Source of the DNA: Saccoglossus kowalevskii
Lineage: Eukaryota > Hemichordata > Enteropneusta > Harrimaniidae
Assembly (NCBI RefSeq): GCF_000003605.2
Contig: NW_003137830.1
Coordinates: 78,417 to 104,645 of the forward strand
Reading direction: 5' to 3'
DNA: 26,229 bases
Shown here: piece after piece, positions 466 through 26,229 of the stretch
Numbering within the stretch: the first letter of the stretch is position 1
Layout of the letters: each line of letters starts with the position of its first letter
Made by a program: the position numbers and the translations under genes
Notes under the pieces: generated by a model
Told to the model about the DNA's origin: nothing
Seen by the model: only the letters and a program-made list of their open reading frames with translations
The model's database searches: none

Positions 466-534
466 TTATTTTCCAGCACAGTGTGGGTAACTGAATCCAC
501 CACATGCTACAGCCACGATGATATAAATTATCAC
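466..534 (-). CDS. VAMP7: Copy A terminal exon: end of membrane helix and lumenal tail
   Basis: After the acceptor TTGCAG, 22 residues and a TAA stop follow: VIIYIIVAVACGGFSYPHC, then AGK. The CGGF-(S/T)-(Y/W)-P-x-C pattern is the recognisable VAMP7 C-terminus. The exon has exactly the same length (69 bases) and phase as the copy B terminal exon at 23471-23539 and differs from it at a few positions. It supplies the second half of the transmembrane helix; the first half comes from the exon at 3502-3549, across an intron of about 3 kb. Confidence 0.93.
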   Translation of the reverse strand: MIIYIIVAVACGGFSYPHCAGK

Positions 535-1756: not shown

Positions 1757-4700
1757 ATACAAATACTGGTCAAGTTTCGTCCGACAGTTGTGAATATGTC
1801 AGACCCTTATTTTGCTGATTACAGGTTTTCGACTATCTGTAATTAGCGAAACGAACCATTTACTGATTATATTGTTATTATCGGCAAATGTTTTATTTCG
1901 TTATATACAATACTGAAAGGTGAATATACTGGTCATGTTTCGTCCGACAGTTGTGAATATTGTACGTGTCAGACCCTTGTTTCGCTGATTACAGATTTCG
2001 ATTATCTGATTAGCGAAACAAATCATTTACTATTAAAATCCCGTTATTTTCGGCAAATGTTATATACACTACTGAAAGCTAAATATACTGGTCAAGTTTC
2101 CACCGACAGTTTTGTACGTGTAAGAACCTTGTTTCGCTGATTAAAGATTTTTGATTATCTGTAATTAGCGAAACGAACCATATACGTATTAAATATTATT
2201 ATTTTCGGCAAATATTTTGTAAATATTGAGCATATAAAACCCATATTCACTGAATACAGTTCAATTTTTATTAGGTGTGTTATCCTGTTTCGTTTCGTTT
2301 CTTCGATTACAATAAGCCTTCTCCGTATGCTCGTGTTGGAAGTGGCGGGTAAGTCCCGGTGAGAAAGTTTGCGGCCTAGTCGGGGCTATGGGTCCGCCAT
2401 TGGGGGCCTAGGGAGGTGTACGAGAGTGGTTGTTGCAAGAGAGGGCCTACAGCGGGCGCAGCAACCCTGTGAGTTTATTTCTGGGGCCTATTGCAGACAT
2501 TAGCATTTTAAAGGGCCTATTTGCCTCCCGCGCGGGCCCGCTCTAGAAGGTGAAAAACACCCCGCTTTCCCACTAAATTTGGAACGCACATGGGGTAGTA
2601 ACAGCATATAGAGTGACCCCCCCGGGAGAGTGTCCTGGAACCCTTGACATCCAATCAGGCAAGTCTTGCAACACCAATCTCTCTTTCCAAGATTCAAATC
2701 ATCCACTGAATGATATAATGACTCACTTTAACAGCGAATCTCAACGGGAGCCATTACAAGAGAGTTTGACAATCAGGACAGTCAAGTTGATGATGTAACT
2801 GAATCAGTGAAGCGTGAATCATGACATGGGTGGTGTAAATAATCGACTAGAACATTGTATGGCTGAAATTGTGAATACATGTGTATTGTGGAGACAATTA
2901 ATGCGAGTGGTGACATGTGAAATGAGTTACCCACTCTCCCGATTAAACATTGATGGATGTACGTGTTGATAAAAGTTGGCTTTGATTGCACATTCACTAG
3001 TACTGTTCACTAGAGTGTGTTAGTGATGGTGATTCAGAGCACAAGAAGTGTTTGGTATTACGCTGAAATATGACCAGATGACCTGTTAATAGGTTAGCTT
3101 AAATTGATGACAATTATGTCCATGGACGATTCCAGCATGAAATTAAATCCACAAGTAGGTTCAAGGATCAAGGCACGCTGCCAATACACAAGTGGCAAAG
3201 TGGATCTTGTCTTTTATACAGTTTGACAGCTATTCATGACGGTAGAAATATATGTGCTGTAAACTAAAAATCCTGGTTCAGAGTGTCTCCTGCAAATTAC
3301 ACTAAATTGAATTATACTATAATTTCTGGCTTGGTGTGTCATGTTTTTGTTAAGGGTTTGTGTTTGACCAATGAGTCAGCTCTAAGTCGATTACAGTTCA
3401 ATAAGCAGCTTCTTTTATGTCACCAGGAAGTGAATTCTAGTATACTAGTATAAGAAGTTGGTCATTAGATTATTGAATAATTACTTATTAATAATACTTA
3501 CTGCAATTATTATAGTCAAGATGATAACTAACATTGGCTTCAGGAAACTCTGAAAAGAATATCAAGAGTTGCATTTCAAGATAATGGCTGATAATAAATC
3601 ATGACTCAGATGCACGTAAATACCAATTAATAATAGTAATAATCACCATAATGTGGGAATCTCATTGGCAACCATATTGCCATTGTACAGACACCGCCCT
3701 GGGAGGAAAAGCCTTACAGGAGTGAAGGTAAGAAAACAGAAAATTGTTTCCTCATACGACTGAAATATTTCTTATTATTACTACTGCATTGAGCACAATG
3801 CATTCTGGTCCAGTGCACTGGAAGCAAGTAATAAGCTGCTTATATTATGTAACATTATTTACATAATTAAATACATATAATGCATAAGCATTGTTCAATC
3901 AAAGAACGTAAGGATATACCTAGAACATGTTGTAGGTATTGATGTAAAGGTGTGACATTAAATAAATTGAAACTCTCTTTTGCTCAGGTACAATTTTATT
4001 ATTGTTTTCACCAAATTGAATCGTATCCGATCACCAATTCGTACAGGAAGTATTGAATGCAAATAATTAAATATATAGTAAGTACGGAAAACATTAATTA
4101 GTTAGCAGGTAAGTAAGAAAGGAAGGGAATATTTAAAATGTTAAAATACATCTAATTATAATGCAAAAACGAAAGTAATCAGTATTATGGAATAGCCGAC
4201 ACATCCATATATCACAGTTTATTGAAATATCATAATTGGTCAATTGTGTATGCAAATTGGGAAATAATATTCATAATATGTGTTTTTTTTAAATAAAGAC
4301 TGAATAACAAAAGGGCTAATGTACTGTTTTACCTACATATGAAGCTTCTGGATTCTTATAACCTAGGAGAGGTTCACGTTCACTATTGTCACGTTTCCCC
4401 TAGAATGAAAAGAAATATAAGAAATGTGGTTAAAAAGGTCCAAGTGATGTAGTAGTAATGTGTCAAAACCAGTTGAGTGTTGAACATGTTGAAAATAACA
4501 AATTCCTTACAACCGACACAAGTAGAGCTATCCAAAGCCGTACACCTTGAATACACCTTGGTCTGACATGTGCACGATGTCGTTGGCGCGACTTTTGTTT
4601 AAATATATATGTCTGGGTATCTTATGTCCACTATAAAATAAATAAATATTTCGTATGATCTTCGCCAGAAAATGTTATTACTTAAACTATGTTCTGAAGG

Positions 4701-7700
4701 GAAAAGGATAAAGGCACGAAAATATAAATATCACTTATATCACTATTTCTGATTTCGGATAACCTTAAACACTCCAGCTATCGATAGAAAACAATGTTAT
4801 TAATTATCACCAAATAGTTCAGAAGGTATTGTATACAATTATTTAACTAATAGCGAATGAAAAAGACAAGTTAATTGAATTTGACACTAGTTATGTAAGT
4901 ATTTTGTTTTCATTATATAAAAATTATTTTCTTGAACCAAAGATACAATGCAGGATTTATATGACCTTAGTTATAATAATCCATATCCAGTCCATAAAAG
5001 CAAACTAATTATCATACAAATTAAAAAAAAATAAAACATTTATAATATTGAATATAATACATATTTTATATATATGATGCCATTGCGTGAGAGAATCAGA
5101 CTGCAGTCACTTTGTATCTGATAGTGAATGATCTATTATTTCCCCCAAATTACTACCATAAATGATTATGAATCGATAGCTCTACTTCTCTACTTGTACC
5201 AATGTGTATACGCTGCAGCATTTATTCAGCGATATCATATCACATTTCTCCCAAACATTTCACTCACATTTGATGCTTCTTGAACACTACCAACTTGGTC
5301 TTCAATACTGGATTCACTTTCATGTATGTCAAGATTACTCTACAATAAAAAAAATAAAAGATGTCATGTGTTTAATATATTTAGAACAATTGACAACTTT
5401 ACCAATTAATCAATCAACCAAAGAAAAGTCAGATACACCTTATGTGTGTCTGAGATATGTAGACAACGATTACAGTTGACAATTAAGTTAAGATTTCTCA
5501 TCATAGGATAGATTCTCTTACATCAGATGATTCTTGAATATTAATTCCAATATTAATTGATGAATATTTAGATATAACTTATGTTAGATTGAGATAATTA
5601 TGTTAATTAAAATGCACACTGGTTATGTATGTTAATTGCTATATATATAACATGATTCAATATGTACCTCATATCCTTGATACAAAACGGTGGTTGTTCA
5701 GATACAAAAGTAACATTTTTAAATTTCCCTTAATTATGATGCAATTAGGTAATGAGTTTTCAAATATTTGTGGTTGTGAAAAATCTAATACATCTATATA
5801 CCACATTTTATTGATTTTATGATCAATAATTATTTTAACCAGGGATTGAATTGTTTCCATCATTCTTAACAAATCAAGGATTTTTTTCTTACATCTGATG
5901 GTTCTTGAATATTATCACCTCGATTGAAATATTCATTACTTGCTTCACTGTCGTGTCCGTCGATTCCCCCCTACAGTGAAAATGATAAAAAATATCTTTC
6001 AATTGAAATACATGTATTATGAACTTAATGATACAATCAAGGAATTGAAGTACAATTGTATTTTACTTGTGTGTATAATGTGTTTCCTTGATACTAAACA
6101 GTGGTATCTGGGTTAAATTACCCACTAATAATAATGCAATTAGTTTTAATAGATTGTGGTTGTTAAATAAAGATCGTAGATTGTGAATTATCCGATAGAT
6201 TGAGGAGTACAAAAATATATTTTCCCATCATTCTTAAAATGCGGCGGTCGTCGAGCAACGCATGCGCAAGATACGTGTCTCATATATGAGCAAAGATGGC
6301 GACTTTTAATGTTACAAAGCTTTACTTAAGTAATTTCTTTGGTGATTGGAAGGTTTCGAAAAGTCACCAGCGGTAATTAGTTCACGTAACGCCCAGGTCG
6401 AAACTCGTACATTTGATTTCTACTAGAAGATCGCATTGGATTGTGGTAAAATTAATGTTTATCAACACAAATGCCGCACATGCGCGGCACGACGACTACT
6501 GACTGCCCTATAATATAAGCACATTGTTTCACTTACATTAGTTCCTTCCTGAAAATTGTTACGCTGGTAAATGTCTTCAATACTTGCTTCACTTTCATGT
6601 CTGTCAAGGTTGTTCTTCCATACAACAGGTAAAAGATGACTTTGTATTGAAATAGGTATTTTATGAACCTATTAATTAATTTAAACTAAAACAATTCACA
6701 AGCATTCTTCGATTAAGATTAAATTTACATGCAAAGAGCATAGTTTCACTTACATCAGATGGTTCATAAATTTTATCACTTTGATTAATGTCATCAATAC
6801 TTATTTTACTTTCCTGTCTGTCTAGGTTTCTCTAAAAATATAAACAGATGTATTTGTATGAAAATACTTATGCTTTGAAACTATTAACTTAATTGAACCA
6901 ATAATCATTGTTCATGCATTCTTTTATCAATTCTGTTGATATGATGCCACTGGGTGAGATGTTCAGACATCAGCATCCGGCTTCTACATGCAAAATAGCC
7001 TTTTTCAAAAATACTTTGTGATTTTGAATTTCTTAAAATTACTTCTATAAATTGATATGAATTGACAGCTCTACTTCTGTCAATGTTAGTGTACCGCAGT
7101 TTTTTTCATCGATATCATTTGTCATTAATTTTGTAGGCTAATGTAATATGTTGTTTTTTCATGGATAAATCGTATATTGGTAACCATCAATGTATTTAAA
7201 TGGGAGTTGTATTTTCAGATATTGTAATGGTGATTCCTAATTCTTTCTTCTAAATAATTTCTGACTAATTATTTAATTAGTCAACAGGGTGACCACGTTG
7301 TTACTAGTTATCTTACGTAATTCCACATTACACACTTATCCTGACTGAACCTTACTATATAAACATTTTGAAATCAGTATTAACACAAGTGGAAAATTAT
7401 ATCGATATTTGGCTAAATGAAAGGCGTTAGAATTAGACTCTTCGACGTAATATAAATAAACTCAGTGTTGAATTTAACTTGAACTTGACACATGCATATG
7501 ATTTGAAGATCTTGTGCATGCGTGTGTGCATGCACCTTTTTCATATATTTCAGATTTTTGTGGAATATCCAATACATCGACACAGCACATTTTATAGACA
7601 ACTATTCTTAGCAAATGAATGAGTTATTCTTAACAAATGAATGATAGTTTCACTCACATTTGATGCTTCTTGAACACTATCACCTTGGTCTTCAATAATT

Positions 7701-10700
7701 GCTCCACTGTCATGTATCTCAAGATTTTCCTACAATAAAAACAATAAAAATCAATCAAAGAAACTTTACAAATATGACAACAGTAATTAAGGAAGAAATG
7801 AAATATTTAGGTTAATTCAAATGTACATTGTTATGTATGTTAATTCCAACAACATTCAATGCATACCACATACCCTTGATACAAAACTGTGTACAACGGT
7901 ATCAAGGTTAAATTTCCCTTAATTATTATGCAAATAGGTATTGAGTTTTCAAATATTTGTGATTTTGAAAAATCAAACACATCCATATACCACATTTTAT
8001 TGAAATTCTATGATCATTTATTTGCAAATTAGGAAATAATATTTCTTTCAATCTGTGTGCTAAAGATACGGAGACAAAGGATAAAGCCATTAAATACTAT
8101 TGAAATGTACATTCGTTATGTATTCTATTTTTATGTATAACATGCTTGATTGATACAAAACAGTGGTATCAGGGTTAAATATACCCTAATTATAATTAGT
8201 TTTCATTGATTGTGGTTGGTTGTTAATTGTAGATTGTGGATTATCCAATACATCAAGGACTACAAAGGAAATAGTCCTCATCATTTTAACATAAGGAGTT
8301 TTGTTTCACTTACATTTATTTTTTCTTGAACATTGTTACCCTGGGTAACGTCTTCAATACTTGCATCACTTTCATGTCTCTCAGGGTGGCTCTACCATAA
8401 AAAAAAAGACAAAAATAAAATTTATATTGGAACATGTGTGTTATGAACCTATTAATTCAACTGAAACTGGACTGAAATAACAGGCATTCTCCAATTAAGG
8501 TTACATTAACAAATAGCTTCCATAAAATAATTTCATTTGCCTGTGTTAAATACTCATGTATTATGTTGAATGTCTGTGAACGATCGTAAAGCAGTAGTGA
8601 TGATAAAATAACAAAGGCTCAGCGGTGTAATGTCTGGTTGGTAAAATTATTCATATGAGATTATTTAATAATTATCAAATACCAGTGATATAGGACGTAT
8701 CATATTAGTATTCATTCATTTTTTTCTTCAATTTTTGATCGATCTCGTTTTAAAACATTGCGATGAGTTAATAATACGCACTGTGAATCTATCCTTGTAA
8801 AAAACAACATTAAGGCTCATTATAGGTGTAATCTACCGCCAACCCAACATCCCATAATTTAGACCAGTTGTCAGATAAGGACAAAGCTTACGTTATCTTA
8901 GAAAACGTATCAAAAGCGATTAAAATATTTCACTATCCAGAGTGTTTAGGGCGTTGTTTACATCGTCAAAAACAAAACAAGTCATAAATTAAAACCACAA
9001 TTAACTCTATCTAACGGCATTTTATCTCAGCTTGTATATATTCCACAAGATTTCTCGTAGTAGAGCTTTATTATACACATAATGTACAGTAAATTGATTT
9101 TTGATTTAGTGTAATGTTTTTATATAATTATGCGGAACAACATTTATTCTTGAAAAATGGACCAGAAAGTATACAAAATCAGCTACTAGTATACTTACAT
9201 CTTCTGTTTTATAGACGGTAATTTTAATTTTACATTTGATATGTAATTGTACCTCTCCATCTCCCAATAAGCTACCTGTAGAGAACAATTATACACATTA
9301 ACGTATGACTGTATACATTCGATTAGTATATACGTCTTACATAGTCAATGGATCACTGAATTCCTATTAATTTGGATATTTTTGGTAGTTTCAGCACAAA
9401 TACGTATGTGATACAAACGGATTTAGTCATTTAAAATTTCCCTAGTATTTCCATGCACATATTTGTTTCACCCATGCCTCGTAGCGATTTTCACAGGTCG
9501 TGAAAGTAAGTCGCATGTTTATGGATCCACACAATAACGCCATATCTTTAATGGAATTGTGTGAAATAAGGCGATCCGACAAATCCGATTTTTAATTTTT
9601 TTATTTAAACATCGAGAAACAGCAGGCACATTCTCTCCGGGTTTTTTTTCGCTTGTTTTAAAAAAAATACTTTTGGAACTAACGCGCATATCGTTTCGTA
9701 TTTTTTGGTCTAACACTAATTGGTGTTCATAATCTAGTATGCAAATGAACACGCACAAATTACGACGACTGCGGCAACTGTGAAAGAAAGAAATGGGGTT
9801 AACGAGATATTCAATTCGTGGCCCTGCAATATCCGATTTCTTCGTTTATATTATTTTTATTTACAACGTAAAGTCAAATAATCCTCTATATATAAGAGTG
9901 AATCACATCGATTCAGGTCTATACTAACACATATACTAGTATAAAGTGATGTAAAATTAATTTAGCTCCGCTGTCAGATGACCCAGCGGAGTTGTTGGTA
10001 TGGGGTATGTCTCTCCGGCGTCGTCCGTCCCGCGTCCCGCATGAAGTTTTCCTTTAAACGACTTCTTCTTCAAAAGTACTTGACCAATTACATTCATATT
10101 TGTACCAAAGGTACTTGGGGGTGGTCCTCTGTCAGATTTGTTAAATTTATTTTCGACAACTAGTTCGAAACCGTAAGTCCAAATGCTGTCATATTTCCAG
10201 CAATGATACTGGCGTGATACTCTGTCAGATTTGTTAAATTTGTGTCAAAATATGCAAATTTGGACTTTTAGTGAATATTTTTGTTATTTTTTTTATTTTC
10301 GACAACTAGTCCGAAACCGTAAGTCCAAATGCTTTGATATTTGTAGCAATGGTACTTGGGGTGGTCCTCTGTCAGATTTGTTAAATTTGTGTCTAAATGT
10401 GGAAATTTGGATTTTTAGTGAATATTTTTGTTATTTTTGGTAAAATATGTTATTTTCGACAACTAGTCCGACACCGTAAGTCCAAATGCTTTCATATTTC
10501 CAGCAATGATACGTGGGGTGCTCCTCTATCAGATTTGTTACATTTGTGTCAAAATTTGGAAATTTGGATTTTTAGTGAATATTTTTGTCAATTTTGGTAA
10601 AAAAATGTTATTTTTCGACAACTTGTCCGAAACCGTAAATCCAAAATCCTTACATATTTCCAGCAATGATACGTGGGATGGTCCTCTGTCAGATTTGTAA

Positions 10701-13673
10701 AATGTCTGTAAAAATATGCAAATTTGGATTTTTAGTGAATATTTTTGTCATTTTTGGTATTTTTTTTATTTTCGACAACTAGCCCTAAACCATAAGTCCA
10801 ATTGCTTTCATATTTCTAGCAATGATACGTGGGGTGGTCCTCTGGTGTCAAAATATGCAAATTTGGATTTTGAGTGAACATTTGTCTCATATTCATTTTC
10901 CATGATAATGAAGACAGCGGAGCTATTTCGACCGTTAGGTCGCTTGTTTTGCTCTGGCTGCCGCGAAAGATAAATGTGATGATGTTTTTTTTCTTACTGT
11001 AGATGCAGATAACAACATTGATGGATGACTGTAACAACATGTTGTGTTGTCACTAAATTGCAACATGGTCGCATATTGGTAGCTATAGTGCGCATGCGTG
11101 TGGTGTGTAATCGTTGACGGTGTAGAGACTCGGACGTGGTGTGTTTATGTGATCAGTATACAACGGGGAATGAGACAATGACTTAAATCAGAAAATATTT
11201 ACCGACTTACCAAGATCTTTCATTGTTAATTTTCTTGCTTCATAATCTATCTTCTTTTCTAACGTCGACAAATTATCTCTGCTGGTATCTTTAGACAAAA
11301 AGTCAACAGCACCATCTACAGTGTCGCTATATTGCGCCTTGGACATTCAAAAAGTGTAAATGTAGTTAGGAAAGAGTTCTAATTTCTCACTTTTCATCAT
11401 GAGTGGGATCGAAAATGAGTCGATAACACTCAACCAATTACATGTGTGGGTCACTTGGAGTTGACTAGAAAATGGCAAGCCGACTTTACAAATAGTTTCA
11501 GTGAGCTAGTTGGGTTGCAATTATTCCCCCCAAAACCTGACTTTATTTCAGTCACTGCATATATAGTCTATGACACAGGTAATGTAATTGCAAGAGCATG
11601 ACATGGTCACCCAGCCTGAACTAGTATGTATGTAGGCACCCGGCCATCTCTCAATCTCCTTGTCATCGTCACTACAGAATAAATAAAGAAAGTAACCTCA
11701 TGGCATGGAATGTATTCTGATGCTATTTGAATATTCTCAGTTTCAGTTTCGCCATGGATACCAGAAGGTCAAAATAACAACTACATGTGCATGTTGCTAG
11801 GATATGCCTGCAATGGGATGAGACAAAGAAGATCTTTTTGATTTCACCTAGCAGCAAGCAACAACCTGAAGTGGTGATGGTTCCAAAATACATGCAACTT
11901 GTTGGACAGCAACATGGTTGGACAGAATGCTTATTAATGTCTTCGCAGACGCTATAGTATTTTTATCTTTACAAAGTAAGGTGAGAAATGAATCGTTGAA
12001 ATGGACGATGTGTTGATTTCATGGTGACCGAGTTTCAAAGATTTAAGTATTATTATAGTAATAGATTAATAAAAAATAATACTGATCGATTTATTTGGAT
12101 TTTCAGCCTTCAAGTGTTAAGCAAACGATTCTAAATACATGTAGTATTGGATGTGCCTATCTCATTTTATGTTGCTGTATTAGATTGTGAATACCCGAAT
12201 AAAAACGAATTTCAAACGAATTTTCAAATTATGCGAATTCAAAGGTCAATGCAATCTGTGCATTAACTGTGGATATTTGGCCAAGTTTTCTGTTTTATAT
12301 TTGCAGCAAATTCACTGGTATTTACAACACTACGACATAATGCAGTCGAGAACACTTTGTGCTTCATATATTACAGGTTGGTGGATTGCCCATTATTGTT
12401 AAAATAATTATAGCTATCTACAATAGAAAGTATGAAGAAGTTAGAATCTATAAAAACGTTTGCAGGAAATCCCATCATTTAAGACTTTGAACCTGTAAAA
12501 TATGTTTAAATATGTCAGAGGTGTTAATCGATGCAGGGATTGTCTGTGTGTCCATCTAATGTGTTATTCTAATATTTGCACTGTGTAAAACAATAATTAG
12601 GTCAAAAACATGTAAAGAATTAACCCCTTTAGCACATTTGTTTAATTTTTAGTGGCACTGAAATATTAATAGTGACCATACATACCATTCGTCCTTGTAA
12701 AAATTCAGATAATTCACTATCCTTTTCGGGGAAATAGGGAAATATAGCAGTTCGATCACTGCGATACTTTGCATATTTGTTGTTAAACCTAATAATAAAC
12801 AACATCTACTGGTAAATTACTAATTTCAATTCATTTGTATGGCTAGAAACATAAAGTGAATGAAATGAAAGCTGAATAGAGGTCTGTCAACTTTGCATAA
12901 ATCAATCTCACGGTAGTGGTCGTACAAAGTCGGTATTCGAGCAGGTAGCAATAGACATGTACCAAAAGAGGCACATATGAATGTGGTTGGATGTTATATA
13001 TGTTACCATTCCTACTCAAATATTGATGCTAACGTGTTTATCATTCAATGTGTATGCATATCCGCCTATAGTAGGGTGTACATAGTATTATGCAACTAAT
13101 AACGCATTTTCAAGCTGCAGACTAGGTAAGATTGTAAGGTAAGATTGATAAATCATAACACATTTGCTGATGATAAAAATACAATATATGAGATGGAATT
13201 ATACAGTGTTTACCGGTGTTTTATGTCTTGAAGATAGCGGAATGCGTTTGCTATTTCAAACTCCTGCAACATGAAGTAACAAATTATTAGAGATATCTGA
13301 GATTATGCCAGGTGTACGAATATGATAAATTAGTTCGCATATGCTACTGCATCACTCTTTAAAGACGTCCATTTACCGATCGTTTGAAGCAACATGTGGA
13401 ATACCTTATCCCATCACCTGAATGTAACAAATTTCTTCAAGATCACAAGGACACTTAACCACGACTTACATCGTCTGTTATACAAAGATACACAATGTCA
13501 TCTTTTGAAATGTAATTGATAAAATAATGATCATCTCTGTATGTCATCATTGCATCTTTGTCCGGAATCTTCATCAGTATCTGTTCTGTCACTTCCATGA
13601 AGTTGCCCTGGCAACTGGCATATTCAGCTATGATTGTGGTTTTACTGGCAATAACACCAAATAAAATAGACAT
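466..13673 (-). CDS. VAMP7: VAMP7-like longin protein with acidic repeat array (copy A), spliced, 14 coding exons
   Basis: Minus-strand exons in transcription order are 13470-13673, 13214-13263, 12686-12788, 11211-11337, 9199-9275, 8314-8391, 7658-7729, 6754-6831, 6537-6614, 5893-5970, 5268-5339, 4337-4399, 3502-3549 and 466-534. They total 1197 bases, 398 residues plus stop, with every junction in phase and every intron GT-AG. Family knowledge: VAMP7 is a tail-anchored R-SNARE of late endosomes and lysosomes, with an N-terminal longin domain that folds back on and regulates the SNARE helix. Seen here: longin domain about 1-119, half a SNARE helix about 137-162, altered segment 163-187, seven acidic repeats 188-360, membrane segment about 366-387, and a lumenal tail with CGGFSYPHC. 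Intact phase over 14 exons argues against a pseudogene. The repeat insertion and truncated SNARE suggest a regulator or adaptor rather than a fusogen; that is inference. Transcript structure is unproven. Confidence 0.85.
840..1170 (-). repeat. Internal repeat units, inverted orientation
   Basis: Two diverged units contain complements of the phrases found at 1190-2230: TTTCGCTAATAACAGATAAT, ATACACGTACAATATT, TATATTCACCTTTCAGT and ATAACGGGATTTTAATTAGT. Together with the direct copies to the right they make a large imperfect palindrome centred near 1175-1190, inside the terminal-inverted-repeat element. Confidence 0.75.
1190..2230 (+). repeat. Internal repeat units, direct orientation, four copies
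   Basis: The unit contains ACTGGTCAAGTTTCGTCCGA, then GTTTCGCTGATTACAGATTT, ATCTGTAATTAGCGAAACGA and TTTTCGGCAAATGTTTTAT. Copies start near 1207, 1765, 1925 and 2087, each 140-190 bases long. The first is separated from the rest by an unrelated AT-rich stretch and the AAAT microsatellite. Repeat-bearing interiors of this kind are common in non-autonomous transposons. Confidence 0.8.
1665..1759. repeat. Microsatellite (AAAT)n, about 23 units
   Basis: An essentially perfect AAAT run lies between two internal repeat units of the transposon. Length polymorphism would be expected. Confidence 0.97.
2635..3501. other. Intron sequence, no feature
   Basis: This is the remainder of the last copy A intron, between the transposon and the exon at 3502. 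I see no exon-like stretch or clear repeat. The short open frames here have no coding character. Confidence 0.6.
3502..3549 (-). CDS. VAMP7: Copy A exon 13: shortened membrane-anchor exon
   Basis: Between acceptor CTTTTCAG and donor GTAAGTATT lies a 48-base phase-0 exon encoding SFLKPMLVIILTIIIA. It corresponds to the copy B exon at 24491-24583 (93 bases). Both begin with Ser and end in a hydrophobic run at the same phase, but copy A lacks about 15 residues. The missing part is the juxtamembrane stretch with TFKKTSKNLARSMCIKN in copy B, which in VAMP7 is the C-terminal part of the SNARE motif. Joined to 466-534 it gives a hydrophobic segment of about 22 residues, enough to cross a membrane. 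Confidence 0.8.
3550..4336. other. Intron with a relic of the duplicated block
   Basis: There is no exon here. Positions about 4195-4280 (ACACATCCATATATCACAG, then TTTATTGAAAT and GCAAATTGGGAAATAATATT) match 7978-8055 in the repeat array. The duplicated segment that spread the acidic exons therefore extends at least this far toward the 3' end of the gene. Confidence 0.6.
4337..4399 (-). CDS. VAMP7: Copy A exon 12: seventh, most diverged acidic repeat, with dileucine motif
   Basis: This 63-base phase-0 exon encodes 21 residues (protein positions 340-360), GKRDNSEREPLL then GYKNPEASY. It follows acceptor TCTAG and ends at donor GTAGGT. The ending PEASY matches QEASN or QEPSD of the other repeats. 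EREPLL fits the acidic dileucine signal [DE]xxxL[LI] that binds AP adaptor complexes. It would lie about 15 residues from the membrane on the cytosolic side. If the donor were not used, the frame would read VGKTVH and stop, giving a soluble product. Onward splicing is preferred because the membrane exon downstream is intact and in phase. Confidence 0.72.
5268..5339 (-). CDS. VAMP7: Copy A exon 11: acidic repeat
   Basis: A 72-base phase-0 exon (24 codons, protein 316-339) after acceptor TTTTATTGTAG and before donor GTGAGTG. It begins SNLDIHESESSIEDQ and ends GSVQEASN. It is about 85% identical at DNA level to the exon at 7658-7729, including the same two-codon deletion relative to the 26-codon form, so the two are block duplicates. 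It carries a SIED site matching the casein kinase 2 consensus. Confidence 0.82.
5893..5970 (-). CDS. VAMP7: Copy A exon 10: acidic repeat
   Basis: A 78-base phase-0 exon (26 codons, protein 290-315) with acceptor CACTGTAG and donor GTAAGA. It begins GGIDGHDSEASNEYF and ends NRGDNIQEPSD. It keeps the D-x-H-(E/D)-S-E-A-S and N-x-Q-E anchors but has lost the SIED tetrad (SNEY instead). Confidence 0.8.
6240..6512. mobile_element. MITE-like insertion between two repeat exons
   Basis: This stretch is more GC-rich than its surroundings and is absent from the paralogous position in block II (about 8295-8300), where the flanks TCATTCTTAAAAT and ATAAG..GTTTCACTTAC are nearly joined. Its ends form imperfect inverted repeats. 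GTCGTCGAGCAACGCATGCGC near 6247 matches the complement of GCACATGCGCGGCACGACGAC near 6476-6498 at about 17 of 23 positions. No transposase is encoded. The small plus-strand frame beginning ATGGCGACTTTTAATG inside it is probably incidental. Confidence 0.6.
6537..6614 (-). CDS. VAMP7: Copy A exon 9: acidic repeat
   Basis: A 78-base phase-0 exon (26 codons, protein 264-289) with donor GTAAGTG and acceptor GTATGGAAG, the weakest acceptor of the array. It begins NNLDRHESEASIED, the best match to the repeat consensus, and ends QRNNFQEGTN. Its closest relative is the exon at 8314-8391. It carries a SIED casein-kinase-2-type site. Confidence 0.8.
6754..6831 (-). CDS. VAMP7: Copy A exon 8: acidic repeat
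   Basis: A 78-base phase-0 exon (26 codons, protein 238-263) with acceptor TATTTTTAG and donor GTAAGTG. It begins RNLDRQESKISIDD and ends INQSDKIYEPSD. The histidine of the consensus is Gln, and the acidic tetrad is SIDD. It lies between duplication blocks I and II and has no obvious partner. Confidence 0.8.
7658..7729 (-). CDS. VAMP7: Copy A exon 7: acidic repeat
   Basis: A 72-base phase-0 exon (24 codons, protein 214-237) with acceptor TTTTATTGTAG and donor GTGAGTG. It begins ENLEIHDSGAIIEDQ and ends GDSVQEASN. It pairs with the exon at 5268-5339. The serine of the SIED tetrad is replaced (IIED). Confidence 0.82.
8314..8391 (-). CDS. VAMP7: Copy A exon 6: first acidic repeat after the SNARE-derived exon
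   Basis: A 78-base phase-0 exon (26 codons, protein 188-213) with acceptor TTATGGTAG and donor GTAAGTG. It begins SHPERHESDASIED and ends VTQGNNVQEKIN. It is closest to the exon at 6537-6614. It is joined in frame to exon 5, which ends YKTED at a codon boundary. Confidence 0.8.
8392..9198. other. Intron sequence, no feature
   Basis: This lies between exon 5 and the first repeat exon of copy A. I find no further repeat exon or recognisable element here. Confidence 0.55.
9199..9275 (-). CDS. VAMP7: Copy A exon 5: diverged second half of the SNARE motif
   Basis: A 77-base exon (2 + 25 codons; protein 162-187) after acceptor CTCTACAG, with donor GTAAGTATAC. It reads (G)SLLGDGEVQLH, then IKCKIKITVYKTED. 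It occupies the same phase and position as copy B exon 25660-25727, which reads (D)TLASRGEKLELL and then VDKTEDLETN. Aligned on Gly-Glu, the arginine that forms the central polar layer of R-SNAREs is Asp167 here. The following heptad pattern is replaced by a basic/beta-like stretch, yet the closing KTED and donor context are kept. The exon is therefore homologous to the SNARE exon but unlikely to form the second half of the helix. Confidence 0.78.
9276..9958. other. Intron sequence, no feature
   Basis: This is the 5' neighbour of exon 5 within the copy A gene. Short open frames only; no exon signature was found. Confidence 0.55.
9959..10928. mobile_element. Non-autonomous transposon with TAGCTCCGCTGTC ends and internal tandem repeats
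   Basis: The left end TTTAGCTCCGCTGTC (from 9961) and the complement of the right end (10913-10928, AAATAGCTCCGCTGTC) share TAGCTCCGCTGTC as terminal inverted repeats. At the left end CTCCGCTG and CAGCGGAG also form a hairpin. The interior carries five tandem units. No transposase frame is present. It lies inside the intron between exons 4 and 5 of copy A. Confidence 0.7.
10155..10880 (+). repeat. Five tandem units of about 146-159 bases
   Basis: The unit begins GACAACTAGTCCGAAACCGT and contains AAGTCCAAATGCTTTCATAT, CAGCAATGATACGTGGGGTG, GTCCTCTGTCAGATTTGTTA and GGATTTTTAGTGAATATTTT. Units start near 10155, 10301, 10458, 10617 and 10774; the last is partial. The overlapping open frames of 60-70 residues here are repeats of the same unit and not genes. 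Confidence 0.9.
11211..11337 (-). CDS. VAMP7: Copy A exon 4: linker and N-terminal half of the SNARE motif
   Basis: A 127-base exon (42 codons + 1 base; protein 120-161) between acceptor AATGTCCAAG and donor GTAAGT. It begins AQYSDTVDGAVDF and continues DNLSTLEKKID and YEARKLTMKDL. The second part aligns with the first heptads of the VAMP7 SNARE helix. The phase (0 in, 1 out) matches VAMP7, whose next exon begins by completing a split codon. An ATG seven bases before the exon start is upstream of the splice site and is not the gene start, because the in-phase longin exons lie further 5'. Confidence 0.8.
11338..12685. other. Intron 3 of copy A, no feature
   Basis: About 1.3 kb between exons 3 and 4. 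A short plus-strand open frame at 12187-12402 has no coding character. I see no repeat family here. Confidence 0.55.
12686..12788 (-). CDS. VAMP7: Copy A exon 3: C-terminal part of the longin domain
   Basis: A 103-base exon (1 + 34 codons; protein 85-119) after acceptor TTTATTATTAG, with donor GTATGT. It begins (R)FNNKYAKYRSDRTAI, then FPYFPEKDSEL and SEFLQGRM. The RF..Y.SRTA..PY pattern aligns with the corresponding VAMP7 segment after the KKRF helix. A later acceptor (TATCGCAG) is also in phase but would remove the conserved RF..Y residues, so the upstream acceptor was chosen. Confidence 0.85.
12789..13213. other. Intron 2 of copy A, no feature
   Basis: 425 bases between exons 2 and 3. The only local oddity is a short direct repeat, GGTAAGATTG, at about 13125-13148. 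Confidence 0.55.
13214..13263 (-). CDS. VAMP7: Copy A exon 2: longin domain helix
   Basis: A 50-base exon (16 codons + 2 bases) after acceptor GTTGCAG and before GTAAAC, encoding EFEIANAFRYLQDIKH plus a split Arg. It aligns with the longin helix containing FERSRAFNFLNEIKKR in vertebrate VAMP7. It lies between exons 1 and 3 with compatible phases (0 to 2). Confidence 0.85.
13470..13673 (-). CDS. VAMP7: Copy A exon 1 (first coding exon): longin domain core
   Basis: This exon encodes 68 residues, starting MSILFGVIASKTTI. It continues with GNFMEVTEQILMKIP and ends DDIVYLCITDD at donor GTAAGT. These are hallmark VAMP7 longin motifs (GNF.EVTEQIL.KIP and IVYLCITDD). The open frame extends 18 codons further upstream, but a good acceptor (TTGTTCTTACAG) ends at 13694. 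The exon therefore probably starts at 13693 with a 20-base 5'UTR, and Met at 13673 is the start. This matches VAMP7 genes in general, which have a non-coding first exon. Confidence 0.93.
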
Positions 13674-13693
13674 GGTGATGTGGTACTTTGAGG
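13674..13693 (-). other. Copy A 5'UTR part of exon 1 (predicted)
   Basis: Twenty bases between the acceptor at 13694-13695 (read on the minus strand as CTTACAG) and the ATG. The separate upstream non-coding exon and promoter were not located. Candidates lie between 13700 and 14950. Confidence 0.5.
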
Positions 13694-14714: not shown

Positions 14715-14974
14715 CGAATGCTATTTCGTGGAAATGGCGAGCGAGTTAAAGGGTCGCATACTGAATGTGCACAATCATCATGTACTTTTGATATTACATG
14801 TAGTTTACCAAGTTTGACAAATTTATAAACATTGGCGTGATTGTCTTTGTATTGAAACGTTGGTAGTCAAAGCCATAGACTTGGTGCCACTGCTTCGGTG
14901 ATTCAAGTTTCCTGGCATGGGCGCTATCGGCGACTTAATTCAATAGCCGAGAAACACGGTGGGGATATTTATTT

Positions 14975-15128
14975 ACAATCGTTTTCACTAAACATTGAAC
15001 AATCAGATTGTGGTAAATGTTGATACATCAGAGCAAGTACCTAATGAAATTGCCACTGATTGTATCACTACTAATCAAAACATTATAACTGTAGCCTAAA
15101 CATGTTTGATACAATGTATAACTGTCTG
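14975..15128 (+). repeat. Left arm of a 154-base inverted repeat flanking the assembly gap
   Basis: It matches the complement of 15744-15897 without gaps, with seven mismatches by eye (about 95% identity). The arms are separated by about 615 bases, 488 of which are unknown. Confidence 0.9.
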
Positions 15129-15743: not shown

Positions 15744-15897
15744 CAGACAGGTATACATTGTATCAAAAATGTTTATGCTACAGTTATGATGTTTTGATTA
15801 GTAGTGATAAAATCAGTGGCAATTTCATTAGGTACTTGCTCTGATGTATCAACATTTACCACAATCTGATCGTCCAATGTTTAGTGAAAACGATTGT
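15744..15897 (-). repeat. Right arm of the inverted repeat
   Basis: Partner of 14975-15128. Each arm contains an open frame ending SGNFIRYLL-stop. All five differences inside that frame change an amino acid, which argues against selection on a protein. Confidence 0.9.
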
Positions 15898-16539
15898 AAC
15901 GTCACAGAGTCAAGAATAATTTCTCGTCTGTAAAAGATTTTTCAGAGGGCAGGCTAAACAAAGTGGCCATGGTGAAATCCACAACTGTCCGAGTGCTTCA
16001 CCAAAACAACGCATTTGAGGAAGTGATAATTATATCCACGTAGTAAACCCCGGAAGCACTGCATGCTGGGTAACAGGTAACATAATTTGCATTACTTGCA
16101 TGTCCTTGAATTCTAGTGTCTAGAAATTGTGTACACCGTCAATTTTAAAATCACAAACTGCATTTGAAATATGTGCGAATGATATTTATTCCGTTCAAAA
16201 AAAAAACATTTTCACAATTTTCAGTGGAAGTTACCTTTATAGGTCTATTTCGGCAACACCATGTCTTAAACTCGGTTTGTGTAGACCTAATACACTTACA
16301 CCTTGAAAAGTAAATACACTAAATTTAAAAATCGGAAACCTAAGAAATAAATAAAAATATCATTTCGCAGGACATGTTTTTTTTTAATGTTTTGTACCCA
16401 GTGAGAGTTCTCGACAACGAATGTTACTGCTATCTCTCCTGCATTTTTGACACAGAAGCCATATTCATGTTTTATTGGGACTACACATGTGACATGGCTG
16501 TGTGGACATCTCTATCAAATGGCAATTTAATGCGCTATC
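15898..16539. other. Intergenic, no confident gene
   Basis: On the minus strand TTTCACCATGGCCACTTTG (near 15967) has an excellent start context but opens only a 22-codon frame ending just outside the inverted repeat. No further exon could be linked to it. Confidence 0.4.
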
Positions 16540-19809: not shown

Positions 19810-19977
19810 TTAGAAAACCCAATAGAAAGCAAAACCAGCGGCCAGGATCGTGAAACCCGCAACAAGTTGAAAATTGCCACCAGGTCTTCTTTCACGTCTG
19901 TCGGCTTTCCTTTGTTGGTTATTATGTACCAACGCGTTAAGTTTCAATAAACGATACACCACCGAGTCTCTCAGCAT
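19810..19977 (-). CDS. Possible 55-residue tail-anchored protein
   Basis: The frame starts MLRDSVVYRLLKLNALVHNN, has a strongly basic middle (QQRKADRRERRPGG), and ends in a hydrophobic segment FQLVAGFTILAAGFAFYWVF directly before TAA. A short basic stretch followed by a C-terminal transmembrane helix is the layout of small tail-anchored or mitochondrial membrane proteins. An in-frame TAA lies four codons before the ATG, and CAG precedes it, so it could be a complete ORF or the last exon of a longer gene. A second overlapping frame is also open here, which lowers confidence. It lies 240 bases upstream of the exon at 19430-19569 on the same strand. No family was recognised. Confidence 0.4.
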   Translation of the reverse strand: MLRDSVVYRLLKLNALVHNNQQRKADRRERRPGGNFQLVAGFTILAAGFAFYWVF

Positions 19978-23470: not shown

Positions 23471-23539
23471 TCATTTGCCAGTACAATGTGGCCAGCTGAG
23501 TCCACCACACGCTGCAGACACTATGAAATAAATTATCAC
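23471..23539 (-). CDS. VAMP7: Copy B terminal exon: end of membrane helix and lumenal tail
   Basis: After acceptor CTTTTTGTAG the exon reads VIIYFIVSAACGGLSWPHC, then TGK and TGA. The CGG..WP.C pattern is typical of the VAMP7 C-terminus. It is the same length and phase as copy A 466-534. Confidence 0.93.
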   Translation of the reverse strand: MIIYFIVSAACGGLSWPHCTGK

Positions 23540-26229
23540 CTACAAAAAGAAACATGTTGACATGTATTAATACAACTGTAATTAGGTATCACAGGGAAAC
23601 TATCATTCTGGTGAGGAGTTTGAGTTCTGGTATTAATTAAGTGCTGTATCCATTGTAAAATGTGAGACTCGTATTATTTTAGTCTTTAGAATTGAAAAGT
23701 TAAGTTTACTCATTGCTCCAAAATATAATAAGGGTCATAAGGGAATAGTATTGTGCTTATGGTGGTGGCATACTGTATTAAAACTCCTATTAGCATTGAA
23801 TGACGAAAATGACTATGTGAAAAATGCTGTTTCTATTTTAAAGCTTACTAGCCACAAGAGACTGCTAATTAGTAAATATATCATCATTCAACATGGTTTC
23901 TATTCTTTGTTTAATTGTTTGATTACCTGTATAGGCCATAACACTTATTTACATTTTGCATCTGCACAGTCACTGAATGGCAAGAATCATTCGTTTGCAT
24001 CCATAAATAAAATTATAGCATTGTTTGCTGCTGTTGTTATAAAATATGCTACTATGTGTGCGCCAAATAATAAACAACTTGCGATCAAGTCACAGAAGAT
24101 TGTGAGGTATATTGCTGATTAATGAGCAACATTTGTTATTAGACATTCATGTCCCAGTGCGACGGCCTGTAATGAGCCTCGTATACTGTACAGAATCCTA
24201 CATAGTATTTATATGACCAGTTCAACACCATAATTTCTATTGTGGAAAATTTGCAGTTTTATGTATTTGTTTATGATTTACTTGATAATTTGTGATCAAA
24301 TGGATATAGTACACCATGTGTTAATGTTTGGTGAAAATTTAAAAACATTAAATGTCGAAAATATTACACAAGTATAATAAAGTCGATATAAAAGATGGAA
24401 TAAAAGATACGGTAGTTAACCCCCCCCCCCCAAAAAAAAATATTAGACAAGTACATCTAATGATTAATTTAAAAACACATTTATACTTACAATTAAAACT
24501 ATAACTAAAATGATAGTTAACTTTGCATTTTTAATACACATGGATCTTGCCAAATTTTTACTTGTTTTCTTGAATGTTAAACTCTGAAATGAATAACAAG
24601 AGTGCGATTCAAAAACATGATAGTTGTTATCAAAAGGTAAAGATACAATAATCTTTACACAACACTTCTCTGATACAATGTGCAATTATTATTCTCCAAA
24701 AATATTGTTTTCACACGCACACTGCAGTAATGATGAACCACAAGCTGTCATGATATAGCTAGTAATTAGAATTTCACATAACCATTAGTAACAGATAATA
24801 AGTGTGATCGACTTTGTTAAAGTGTCAATAGCTATCACTATCGATTTTCTTTGCAGATTTTTATTTTTAATAATTTTCGTGTCATCATCCCCAACAAGTC
24901 GACACTGAATACATAGCATAGGTGCTATATTTCAATGTTGTACATCAAATCACTTACAAGTGAAAATATATCAGCAGGGTTACGTGCAAGTCCCCAGAGA
25001 GTGCCATCTATTGAAATCCAGTTTGGTTCAGTGAACCTCAGGGATTACGATACAAGATGACAACTTACCATGGGTCCTGGACACAAAATGTCAAATACAC
25101 TTCCTTCTTAGGAGGCTAAGCCTCTCACTGACGATTTTATGTTTCATTACCCATGGTAGTGTGCATTGTGCATCATAACTTACATAATGGTCTCCATCAC
25201 ATGACCGATTTATTTGGTTATAAAACAGGTGTCACAAACTAGTCAAACAAATGTTGGGATTTCCAGATGATAACAAAAAATACAATACACATTGGTTTTA
25301 ATTTTGTTGGCAATGAAAAGTATACACGTAATGTTAAAAAAACACAAATTCATTGTTTAGACCCATTCACAATAAACATTGCAAACTAGAATAGGCGTTA
25401 GGTGCCTATGAAAACCTAAATTATACTGTAATTAAACTAATTATATTTAGGTGCCAGGAAAGATTGAAATGTTCGAAAAAATTGAGTTTTACGGTACTCA
25501 ACCCTTAATTTTTGTATTGCATTCTATGTTATATTAGTGTTTGACAAAATGTTCAAAATCACAGCTATTGTCACTTTAATCACTGATCAAAGTCTGGTTT
25601 ACTAGTAATTTATTTGTTGAAAAATATACCAAAACAAAAACTAAATCAGCTATACTTACATTTGTTTCAAGATCTTCGGTTTTATCAACAAGTAATTCCA
25701 GCTTTTCTCCCCGTGACGCTAAGGTATCTATCAAGAATTATTACACAAATTTATTAGTTATTATTATTACAAATGTACAATTGATCGCATCCAAGTTCAT
25801 ACTCTTGACATAAATCATATTCTGATTAGAAAGCGTCTAACTTCAAAGTACCTGTAACATAGGTTCTGATAAGGAGTTGATGAAGAAATTGAACTTGATT
25901 TACAGCAAGTCTCAGAAGTTTTGGGGCAGCCAATTTGCAAACTCGCTAGCGAATTGGCTAACTGCTTGGGTTTTGACTAAACGGTTGGCTTTTGAATCTC
26001 GCTGGCGCCGGTTTGTGATGATTTGAGCCCGAAAATGGCCACAGTCAGCTGGCGTGATAATATTATAAATGCGATTAATCTACCGATATTTATTATATGA
26101 GGTTAACCTTCTTGAACACTGCTTGAAACTAAATAGACAAGTTGAGAAACAGTTTCCTACAAATCAGGGAGAAAATAACAAACTTTCACACTCAAACGAT
26201 CCGTTGGGGTAACATTAAGCCAACCGCTG
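23471..26229 (-). CDS. VAMP7: VAMP7 (copy B), 3' part only; runs off the window
   Basis: Visible exons in transcription order are 25660-25727, 24491-24583 and 23471-23539, all GT-AG and in phase. Together they encode the second half of an R-SNARE motif with its central arginine (ASRGEKLELLVDKTED), the juxtamembrane TSKNLARSMCIKN, a transmembrane helix, and the VAMP7 tail CGGLSWPHC. Family role: a tail-anchored R-SNARE that pairs with Q-SNAREs in late endosome, lysosome and secretory fusion. The longin exons must lie beyond 26229. This is the conventional copy and the reference for how far copy A (466-13673) has diverged. The two are head-to-tail with about 9.8 kb between them. Confidence 0.88.
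23540..24490. other. Intron of copy B, no feature
   Basis: It contains a 123-codon plus-strand open frame (23751-24122, starting at TTG) with no recognisable motif, judged a chance frame, and a homopolymer C11-A9 tract at 24421-24439. Confidence 0.55.
24491..24583 (-). CDS. VAMP7: Copy B membrane-anchor exon
   Basis: A 93-base phase-0 exon between TTTCAG and GTAAGTATA. It encodes SLTFKKTSKNLARSMCIKN, the end of the SNARE motif and basic juxtamembrane stretch, then AKLTIILVIVLI, the start of the membrane helix. The pattern (K/T)TS(K/R)NLAR.MC.KN is diagnostic for VAMP7. Confidence 0.95.
24584..25659. other. Intron of copy B, no acidic repeat exon found
   Basis: This intron is positionally equivalent to the one in copy A that holds the seven repeat exons, but no such exon is seen here. 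At 24958-25036 an exon-like minus-strand stretch (79 bases, not a multiple of 3) and a GGTTCAGTGAACC palindrome occur; neither fits as a cassette. Confidence 0.55.
25660..25727 (-). CDS. VAMP7: Copy B SNARE exon with the central-layer arginine
   Basis: A 68-base exon (2 + 22 codons) after acceptor TCTTGATAG and before donor GTAAGTATA, encoding (D)TLASRGEKLELLVDKTED, then LETN. The arginine of SRGE is the R-SNARE zero-layer residue. The split-codon phase matches that between exons 4 and 5 of copy A. Confidence 0.95.
25728..26229. other. Intron of copy B
   Basis: The upstream SNARE exon is not in the window. At 25935-25965 GCCAATT and AATTGGC flank the perfect palindrome TCGCTAGCGA, in a locally GC-richer stretch where a minus-strand frame of about 50 codons is open (25910-26065). 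It may be a repeat; no identity was recognised. Confidence 0.45.

What the first reader, a model, noticed from the sequence alone, without database searches (positions are those of the whole stretch)
4337..8391. Tandem array of seven acidic repeat exons inserted into a VAMP7 gene
Seven minus-strand exons (63, 72, 78, 78, 78, 72 and 78 bases), all phase 0-0 with clean splice sites, encode a recurring 21-26 residue unit. Its core is NLDRHESEASIED followed by Q..NN.QE..N. They lie between the SNARE-derived exon and the membrane exon of a gene whose 5' exons are unmistakable VAMP7 longin domain. The predicted product is 398 residues, nearly double a normal VAMP7. I know of no described longin SNARE with such an insert.
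Basis: partly seen in the sequence, partly recalled or inferred. Interest (0 to 1): 0.88.

Follow-up and report, generated by a model that had tools for sequence, protein, structure and literature searches.

The report
SNARE-less VAMP7 copy with repeat exons
A duplicated copy of a membrane-fusion gene (VAMP7), apparently in an animal, seems to have lost its fusion engine and gained a string of small repeated exons in its place, giving a membrane-anchored regulator rather than a fusion protein; no transcript has yet been seen.

Summary
The exons are real. Seven minus-strand exons (4337-8391) have the stated lengths, GT-AG borders and phase 0-0, and continue the frame of a 398-residue product with a clear VAMP7 longin domain (E=1.7e-28 to a solved VAMP7). 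Six of seven share a repeat unit; the 63-base exon does not (2639 of 3000 shuffles score as well). The interpretation needs changing. The last three exons of a sibling VAMP7 lie upstream and match Synaptobrevin at 78 bits. The finding's product has no such match: its exon 6 is decayed, with the zero-layer arginine aligned to aspartate, and its exon 7 is 45 bases shorter. The array sits in the intron between them. So this looks like a non-SNARE, membrane-anchored longin, like human VAMP7j and plant phytolongins, with a long acidic linker, probably disordered. Kept frames and splice sites argue against a pseudogene (about 1e-5 under neutrality, rough), but dN/dS near 0.74 cannot be told from 1. 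The unit was not found elsewhere in the readable genome. Expression and spread are untested.

The parts
13470..13673 (-). L1: start codon and longin residues 1-68; a candidate splice acceptor places the exon start at 13693
   Evidence: human SYBL1 also starts translation in exon 2 (PMC3123573, passage seen)
13214..13263 (-). L2: longin
12686..12788 (-). L3: end of longin domain (to residue 119)
11211..11337 (-). S1: exon 5 by position and phase (0 to 1); the SNARE N-terminal half is not significantly recognisable
   Evidence: 363 of 5000 shuffles
9199..9275 (-). S2: decayed exon 6 (phase 1 to 0); zero-layer Arg aligned to Asp
   Evidence: 3 of 5000 shuffles; DNA E=7e-6 over exon end, donor and intron of the sibling's exon 6
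8314..8391 (-). R1: repeat exon, 26 aa
7658..7729 (-). R2: repeat exon, 24 aa
6754..6831 (-). R3: repeat exon, 26 aa
6537..6614 (-). R4: repeat exon, 26 aa
5893..5970 (-). R5: repeat exon, 26 aa
5500..5543 (-). remnant of a further repeat exon: 3' end and donor kept, 5' half and acceptor not seen by eye
   Evidence: (84% over 44 bases to the end of R5), sequence
5268..5339 (-). R6: repeat exon, 24 aa
4337..4399 (-). R7: 21-aa exon, no detectable homology to R1-R6; carries the acidic dileucine-type sequence EREPLL
3502..3549 (-). TM1: exon 7 by position, phase and acceptor side, 48 nt against 93 in the sibling; starts the membrane anchor
   Evidence: 81% over 42 bases (mostly intron before the acceptor) to the sibling, E=4e-4; exon protein alone not significant (322 of 5000); sibling exon checked
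466..534 (-). TM2: exon 8, rest of the anchor, VAMP7-type tail, stop codon
   Evidence: 56 of 69 bases identical to the sibling's exon 8; E=3.5e-16
23471..25727 (-). last three coding exons (25727-25660, 24583-24491, 23539-23471) of a sibling VAMP7 with a SNARE domain recognised by Pfam

Best explanation
The gene is a tandem duplicate of VAMP7 that has become a non-SNARE, membrane-anchored longin. Shown by sequence: longin domain and C-terminal anchor are kept; the SNARE core is decayed (exon 6), shortened (exon 7) or unrecognisable (exon 5); six homologous phase 0-0 exons plus a seventh of unclear origin lie in the intron between exons 6 and 7, and array sequence spread by segmental duplication. 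Inferred: with no SNARE motif to fold back on the longin domain, its binding trough stays open. The protein then rides in endosomal vesicles, binds trafficking partners of the AP-3 delta/Hrb kind without being able to fuse membranes, and modulates or competes with the sibling VAMP7, as VAMP7j does in human cells. The array is an acidic, probably disordered spacer between longin domain and membrane; since each exon is a whole number of codons at phase 0, exons can be skipped, so its length could be varied by splicing. R7 may add an adaptor-binding dileucine signal.
For: VAMP7 longin (PF13774 E=1.2e-17; E=1.7e-28 to solved VAMP7). No PF00957 match in the product, against 78 bits for the sibling exons. 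Borders related to the sibling's on both sides of the array. Frame, splice-site and composition evidence for coding. Neutral simulation: keeping six open, in-frame, spliceable repeat exons has a probability of about 1.6e-5 at the measured intron divergence (5e-4 to 7e-9 over the branch lengths tried). Repeat exons are 71% identical on average, flanks of 100 bases 55% and 50%. Six of nine AP-3 interface residues of VAMP7 are identical and the other three are M, M, I (residue list PMC3549491, passages seen). Array on the disordered side of a charge-hydropathy boundary. VAMP7j is dominant negative over full-length VAMP7 in neurite assays (PMC10743575, passages seen).
Against: No transcript or protein evidence. 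Pooled dN/dS among R1-R6 is 0.74 and not distinguishable from 1 (bootstrap pN/pS 0.53-1.42; 84 of 300 column permutations as low; 4 of 15 pairs above 1), so no protein-level constraint on the repeats is shown. EREPLL-type motifs arise in 16% of shuffled arrays. The interface residues are no better conserved (6 of 9) than the longin domain at large (44 of 76). The link of TM1 to exon 7 rests on position, phase and mostly intronic DNA. The sibling's longin exons could not be read, so selection on the longin domain could not be measured inside the species. No other species was available for comparison.
Confidence: 0.62

Rival explanations
1. A recently silenced or never-expressed duplicate: the open frames are a remnant of a gene that no longer works.
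For: dN/dS near 1 in the repeats; exon 5 hardly recognisable and exons 6 and 7 degraded; a remnant repeat exon shows that decay happens here.
Against: No stop, frameshift or broken splice site in 14 exons, although outside the exon edges no match to the sibling's 3.4 kb beats E=0.054 and five array-intron blocks have diverged by about 20%; size differences are multiples of three (72/78; 77 against 68; 48 against 93); longin 58% identical to solved VAMP7 over 76 residues.
Confidence: 0.17
2. The array serves as alternative cassette exons: the main transcript joins S2 directly to TM1 and the repeats are included only in some tissues, giving a family of linker lengths. This is compatible with the best explanation, not exclusive of it.
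For: Every array exon is a whole number of codons in phase 0-0, and S2-TM1 is also phase 0, so any subset keeps the frame.
Against: No transcript data. Donors of R5 (GTAAGAAA) and R7 (GTAGGTAA) depart from GTAAGT/GTGAGT, but so do those of L2 and L3, so donor strength says little.
Confidence: 0.35
3. A working R-SNARE with a long extra linker.
For: Exons 5 and 6 persist in position and phase.
Against: No PF00957 match for the product; its SNARE region joined to the anchor without the array gives only E=0.43, on the anchor part; zero-layer Arg aligned to Asp; exon 7 is 45 bases (15 residues) shorter than the sibling's.
Confidence: 0.04
4. The array belongs to a separate nested gene.
For: Only that no transcript links them.
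Against: No in-frame Met codon lies between residue 158 (S1) and residue 366 (TM1), so the array cannot start its own protein without another exon; phases match on both sides; borders are related to the sibling's intron 6.
Confidence: 0.03

Closest known systems
Human VAMP7j (SYBL1 splice form skipping exons 5 and 6)
   Same: Longin domain joined to the VAMP7 membrane anchor without a working SNARE motif (PMC3123573, section 7 read; PMC10743575, passages).
   Different: VAMP7j is a splice form of the normal gene and keeps the C-terminal SNARE half; here the loss is in a separate gene and seven exons are added.
Phytolongins (land plants)
   Same: VAMP7-family duplicates with longin and anchor but the SNARE motif replaced by another region (PMC2779197, abstract and part 1 of section 4; PMC4861013, abstract).
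   Different: Derived from plant VAMP72; the PhyL region is 60-90 residues and is not described as an exon array in the parts read; here residues 120-360 (241) stand in that place, 173 of them in the seven-exon array.
Sec22a and Sec22c (mammals)
   Same: Animal longin proteins with membrane anchor and no SNARE motif (PMC10743575, passage).
   Different: Sec22 family, not VAMP7; no repeat array is mentioned in the passage seen.
Plant VAMP727
   Same: VAMP7-family member with an acidic insertion (PMC2779197, part 1 of section 4).
   Different: Its insertion is a loop inside the longin domain; that it remains a SNARE is recalled, not checked.

Membership tests
VAMP7 R-SNARE | VAMP7-type longin domain | tested here: met
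   PF13774 E=1.2e-17; four VAMP7 chains at 1.7e-28 to 4.8e-28, YKT6 0.03, SEC22b 0.07
VAMP7 R-SNARE | R-SNARE motif with zero-layer arginine | tested here: not met
   no PF00957; exon 6 aligned to the sibling gives Asp at that place (gap placement in that alignment is not certain)
VAMP7 R-SNARE | C-terminal transmembrane anchor and VAMP7 tail | tested here: met
   16 of 22 residues equal to the sibling's last exon
Non-SNARE longins (as a kind: VAMP7j, Sec22a/c, phytolongins) | longin domain plus anchor, no SNARE motif | tested here: met
Phytolongins proper | PhyL region homologous to the plant proteins | not tested
   no plant sequence was compared
Phytolongins proper | descent from plant VAMP72 | tested here: inconclusive
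   best matches among solved structures are VAMP7 chains (mammalian by recall) and the sibling is adjacent, but no tree with plant proteins was made
Pseudogene | broken frame or splice sites | tested here: not met
   14 of 14 exons open, 13 of 13 introns GT-AG
Expressed gene | transcript covering longin, array and anchor | not testable with these tools
   no RNA data available

The most novel reading that the evidence does not exclude
An animal lineage evolved its own counterpart of phytolongins: a dedicated VAMP7-derived, non-fusing longin whose distance from the membrane is set by a run of interchangeable acidic exons that can be spliced in or out, making it an adjustable decoy or cargo-adaptor hub for the VAMP7 pathway.
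Probability: 0.3. Interest if true: 0.66.

Novelty: new variant of a known kind. Interest (0 to 1): 0.5.

Why it matters
If expressed, it would be a gene-encoded, VAMP7-derived non-SNARE longin in an animal, showing that loss of the SNARE motif after VAMP7 duplication happened outside plants as well. It would give a natural test of what the longin domain does on membranes when it can neither fuse them nor be closed by its own SNARE motif, and a traceable case of coding exons multiplying by duplication inside one phase-0 intron.

Tried and rejected
Other copies of the repeat in the same genome, by protein (9 matches, 8 in this gene and 1 at the sibling's last exon, anchor part only) and by DNA of the R1-R2 block (6 matches, all in this gene's array and its introns). 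An origin as a dispersed transposable element has no support in the sequence searched; parts of the genome read N and the first look of that tool is loose.

A hidden intact SNARE exon inside the gene: none found. The sibling's longin exons upstream: none found in what can be read, much of which is N. Two further longin-domain loci on other contigs, with SNARE exons that look Ykt6/Sec22-like by eye (label recalled, not tested), were dropped. Weak hits on two contigs (E=0.32, E=0.98) were not pursued.

Rfam at gathering scores and ARAGORN found nothing in the window.

Literature, open-licence full texts only: 120 papers, 20 listed; 4 papers; 0 papers; 165 papers, 15 listed. None of the listed titles describes a VAMP7 duplicate without a SNARE motif in an animal, or a longin with a repeat-exon array; the unlisted ones were not seen. 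The species could not be named; 'animal' is an inference from exon phases like the human gene's and from longin similarity.
Full report
Observation. On the minus strand, 14 coding exons run from 13673 to 466 and give 398 residues; 13 of 13 introns are GT-AG. The seven array exons have the stated lengths and are phase 0-0. Seven of seven are open in the frame that carries on from the longin exons; the second frame holds 0 to 2 stops per exon (none in 4 of 7) and the third 5 to 8; no mononucleotide shuffle of 2000 keeps all seven open in the first frame. G+C by codon position in R1-R6 is 0.56, 0.31, 0.20, a pattern usual for coding sequence (recalled). A candidate splice acceptor 20 bases before the ATG (exon start 13693) fits the human gene, whose start codon is in exon 2 (PMC3123573, passage).

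Repeats. R1 to R6 are truly related: for each, 0 of 1000 shuffles reaches its score against the other five. R7 is not: 2639 of 3000 shuffles do as well or better. Introns on both sides of R7 match array introns (4920-4841 with 5650-5572, 67%; 4283-4137 with 8058-7904, 70%), so R7 either diverged beyond recognition or was caught up in the array. The array grew by segmental duplication that carried introns along: 8511-7538 (R1-R2) aligns with 6729-5757 (R4-R5) at 60% over 1034 columns; R3-R4 (70% over 203) and R2-R6 (88% over 102) are further pairs. A remnant with the end and donor of a repeat exon lies at 5543-5500. Protein and DNA searches of the own genome found the unit nowhere else, with the limits that parts read N and the first look is loose.

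Sibling gene. At 25727-23471, same strand, are the last three coding exons of another VAMP7. Joined, they match Synaptobrevin PF00957 at 78 bits. Much of the sequence beyond the window on that side reads N, and the sibling's longin exons were not found in what can be read. No other VAMP7 longin exon was found in the genome; the weak extra hits had E=0.32 and 0.98.

What happened to the SNARE part. The product's longin domain is VAMP7 (PF13774 E=1.2e-17; solved VAMP7 chain 4b93_A, mouse by recall, E=1.7e-28). The product has no PF00957 match in a scan set to E up to 10, though the program's filters drop most matches above about 0.1. S1+S2+anchor joined without the array scores 10.9 bits (E=0.43), on the anchor. 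Against the sibling: S2 is the decayed exon 6 (3 of 5000 shuffles; DNA E=7e-6 across exon end, donor and intron), and the zero-layer Arg aligns to Asp. TM1 stands where exon 7 should be, 48 bases against 93; the support is position, phase and an 81% match over 42 bases that are mostly intron before the acceptor (E=4e-4); the short protein comparison is not significant (322 of 5000). S1 has the position and phase of exon 5, but its likeness to the VAMP7 SNARE N-terminal half is not significant (363 of 5000) (all). TM2 is clearly exon 8 (E=3.5e-16; 56 of 69 bases). The array thus lies in intron 6, which is phase 0 in both genes. In human SYBL1, exons 1-4 encode 114 residues, skipping exon 5 alone breaks the frame and skipping exons 5 and 6 together keeps it (PMC3123573 section 7); here exons up to L3 encode 119 residues and S1, S2 have phases 0-1 and 1-0, the same plan.

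Is it a working gene? For: intact exons, while outside the exon edges the introns show no match to the sibling's 3.4 kb better than E=0.054. Repeat exons are 71% identical on average against 55% and 50% for their 100-base flanks, the flanks being harder to align. A neutral simulation with divergence (JC 0.24) and indel rate from five chosen array-intron blocks gives about 1.6e-5 for six repeat exons staying open, in frame and spliceable; branch lengths 0.08 to 0.20 give 5e-4 to 7e-9. It assumes independent branches and a gap-tolerant alignment, so it is rough; stops alone are weak evidence (0.18 for six exons at the measured divergence). Against: pooled dN/dS among R1-R6 is 0.74, with bootstrap pN/pS 0.53-1.42, 84 of 300 column permutations as low, and 4 of 15 pairs above 1. 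The array therefore shows retention of frame but no proven constraint on its residues, as would fit a spacer, or recent relaxation.

How it may work. In VAMP7 the SNARE motif folds back on the longin domain; AP-3 delta and Hrb use the same trough, and AP-3 binds only when the SNARE motif is engaged in a SNARE complex (PMC3549491, passages). VARP binds the closed form (PMC10743575, passages). A longin with no SNARE motif should be open: free for AP-3/Hrb-like partners, blind to VARP, unable to fuse. Six of nine interface residues are identical and the others are M, M, I, no better than the 44 of 76 overall, so the trough is kept but not specially conserved. VAMP7j, a human form with longin and anchor but no working SNARE motif, is dominant negative over VAMP7a in neurite assays (PMC10743575, passages). 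The array (173 residues, pI 4.17, 43 acidic against 13 basic) falls on the disordered side of a charge-hydropathy boundary. R7 holds EREPLL, which fits the acidic dileucine pattern [DE]xxxL[LI] (pattern recalled); 16% of shuffled arrays hold one by chance. These functional steps are inference; none was tested.

Not a nested gene: no in-frame Met codon lies between residues 158 and 366, and the phases fit on both sides.

Known relatives. Non-SNARE longins are a known kind: phytolongins (PMC2779197, abstract and part 1 of section 4; PMC4861013, abstract), Sec22a/c and VAMP7j (PMC10743575, passages). This gene fits the kind by architecture, not by shown descent from any of them, and differs by the exon array and by being, as far as can be inferred, an animal VAMP7 duplicate. 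Searches in open-licence full texts listed no description of one. Hence a new variant of a known kind, interest 0.5: the architecture is unusual, but expression, spread and function are open.

Noticed in passing
23471-25727 (-): Last three coding exons of a second VAMP7 with a SNARE domain, directly upstream of the finding's gene; its 5' exons could not be read.
   Followed up: yes
14973-15128 and 15744-15899: 156-base inverted repeat, 96% complementary, with an N run between the arms; possible hairpin element or assembly fold-back.
   Followed up: partly
10146-10844: Tandem repeat of period 157 (3.5 copies over 10293-10844) or 316, in the intron between S1 and S2.
   Followed up: no
213-367: Minisatellite of 16/33 bases about 100 bases past the stop codon of the finding's gene, within or next to the likely 3' UTR.
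   Followed up: no
1900-2213: 159-base repeat, 2 copies, 82% matches, in the last intron.
   Followed up: no
19810-19977 (-): Small open frame of 55 residues with a hydrophobic C-terminus; no Pfam match.
   Followed up: partly
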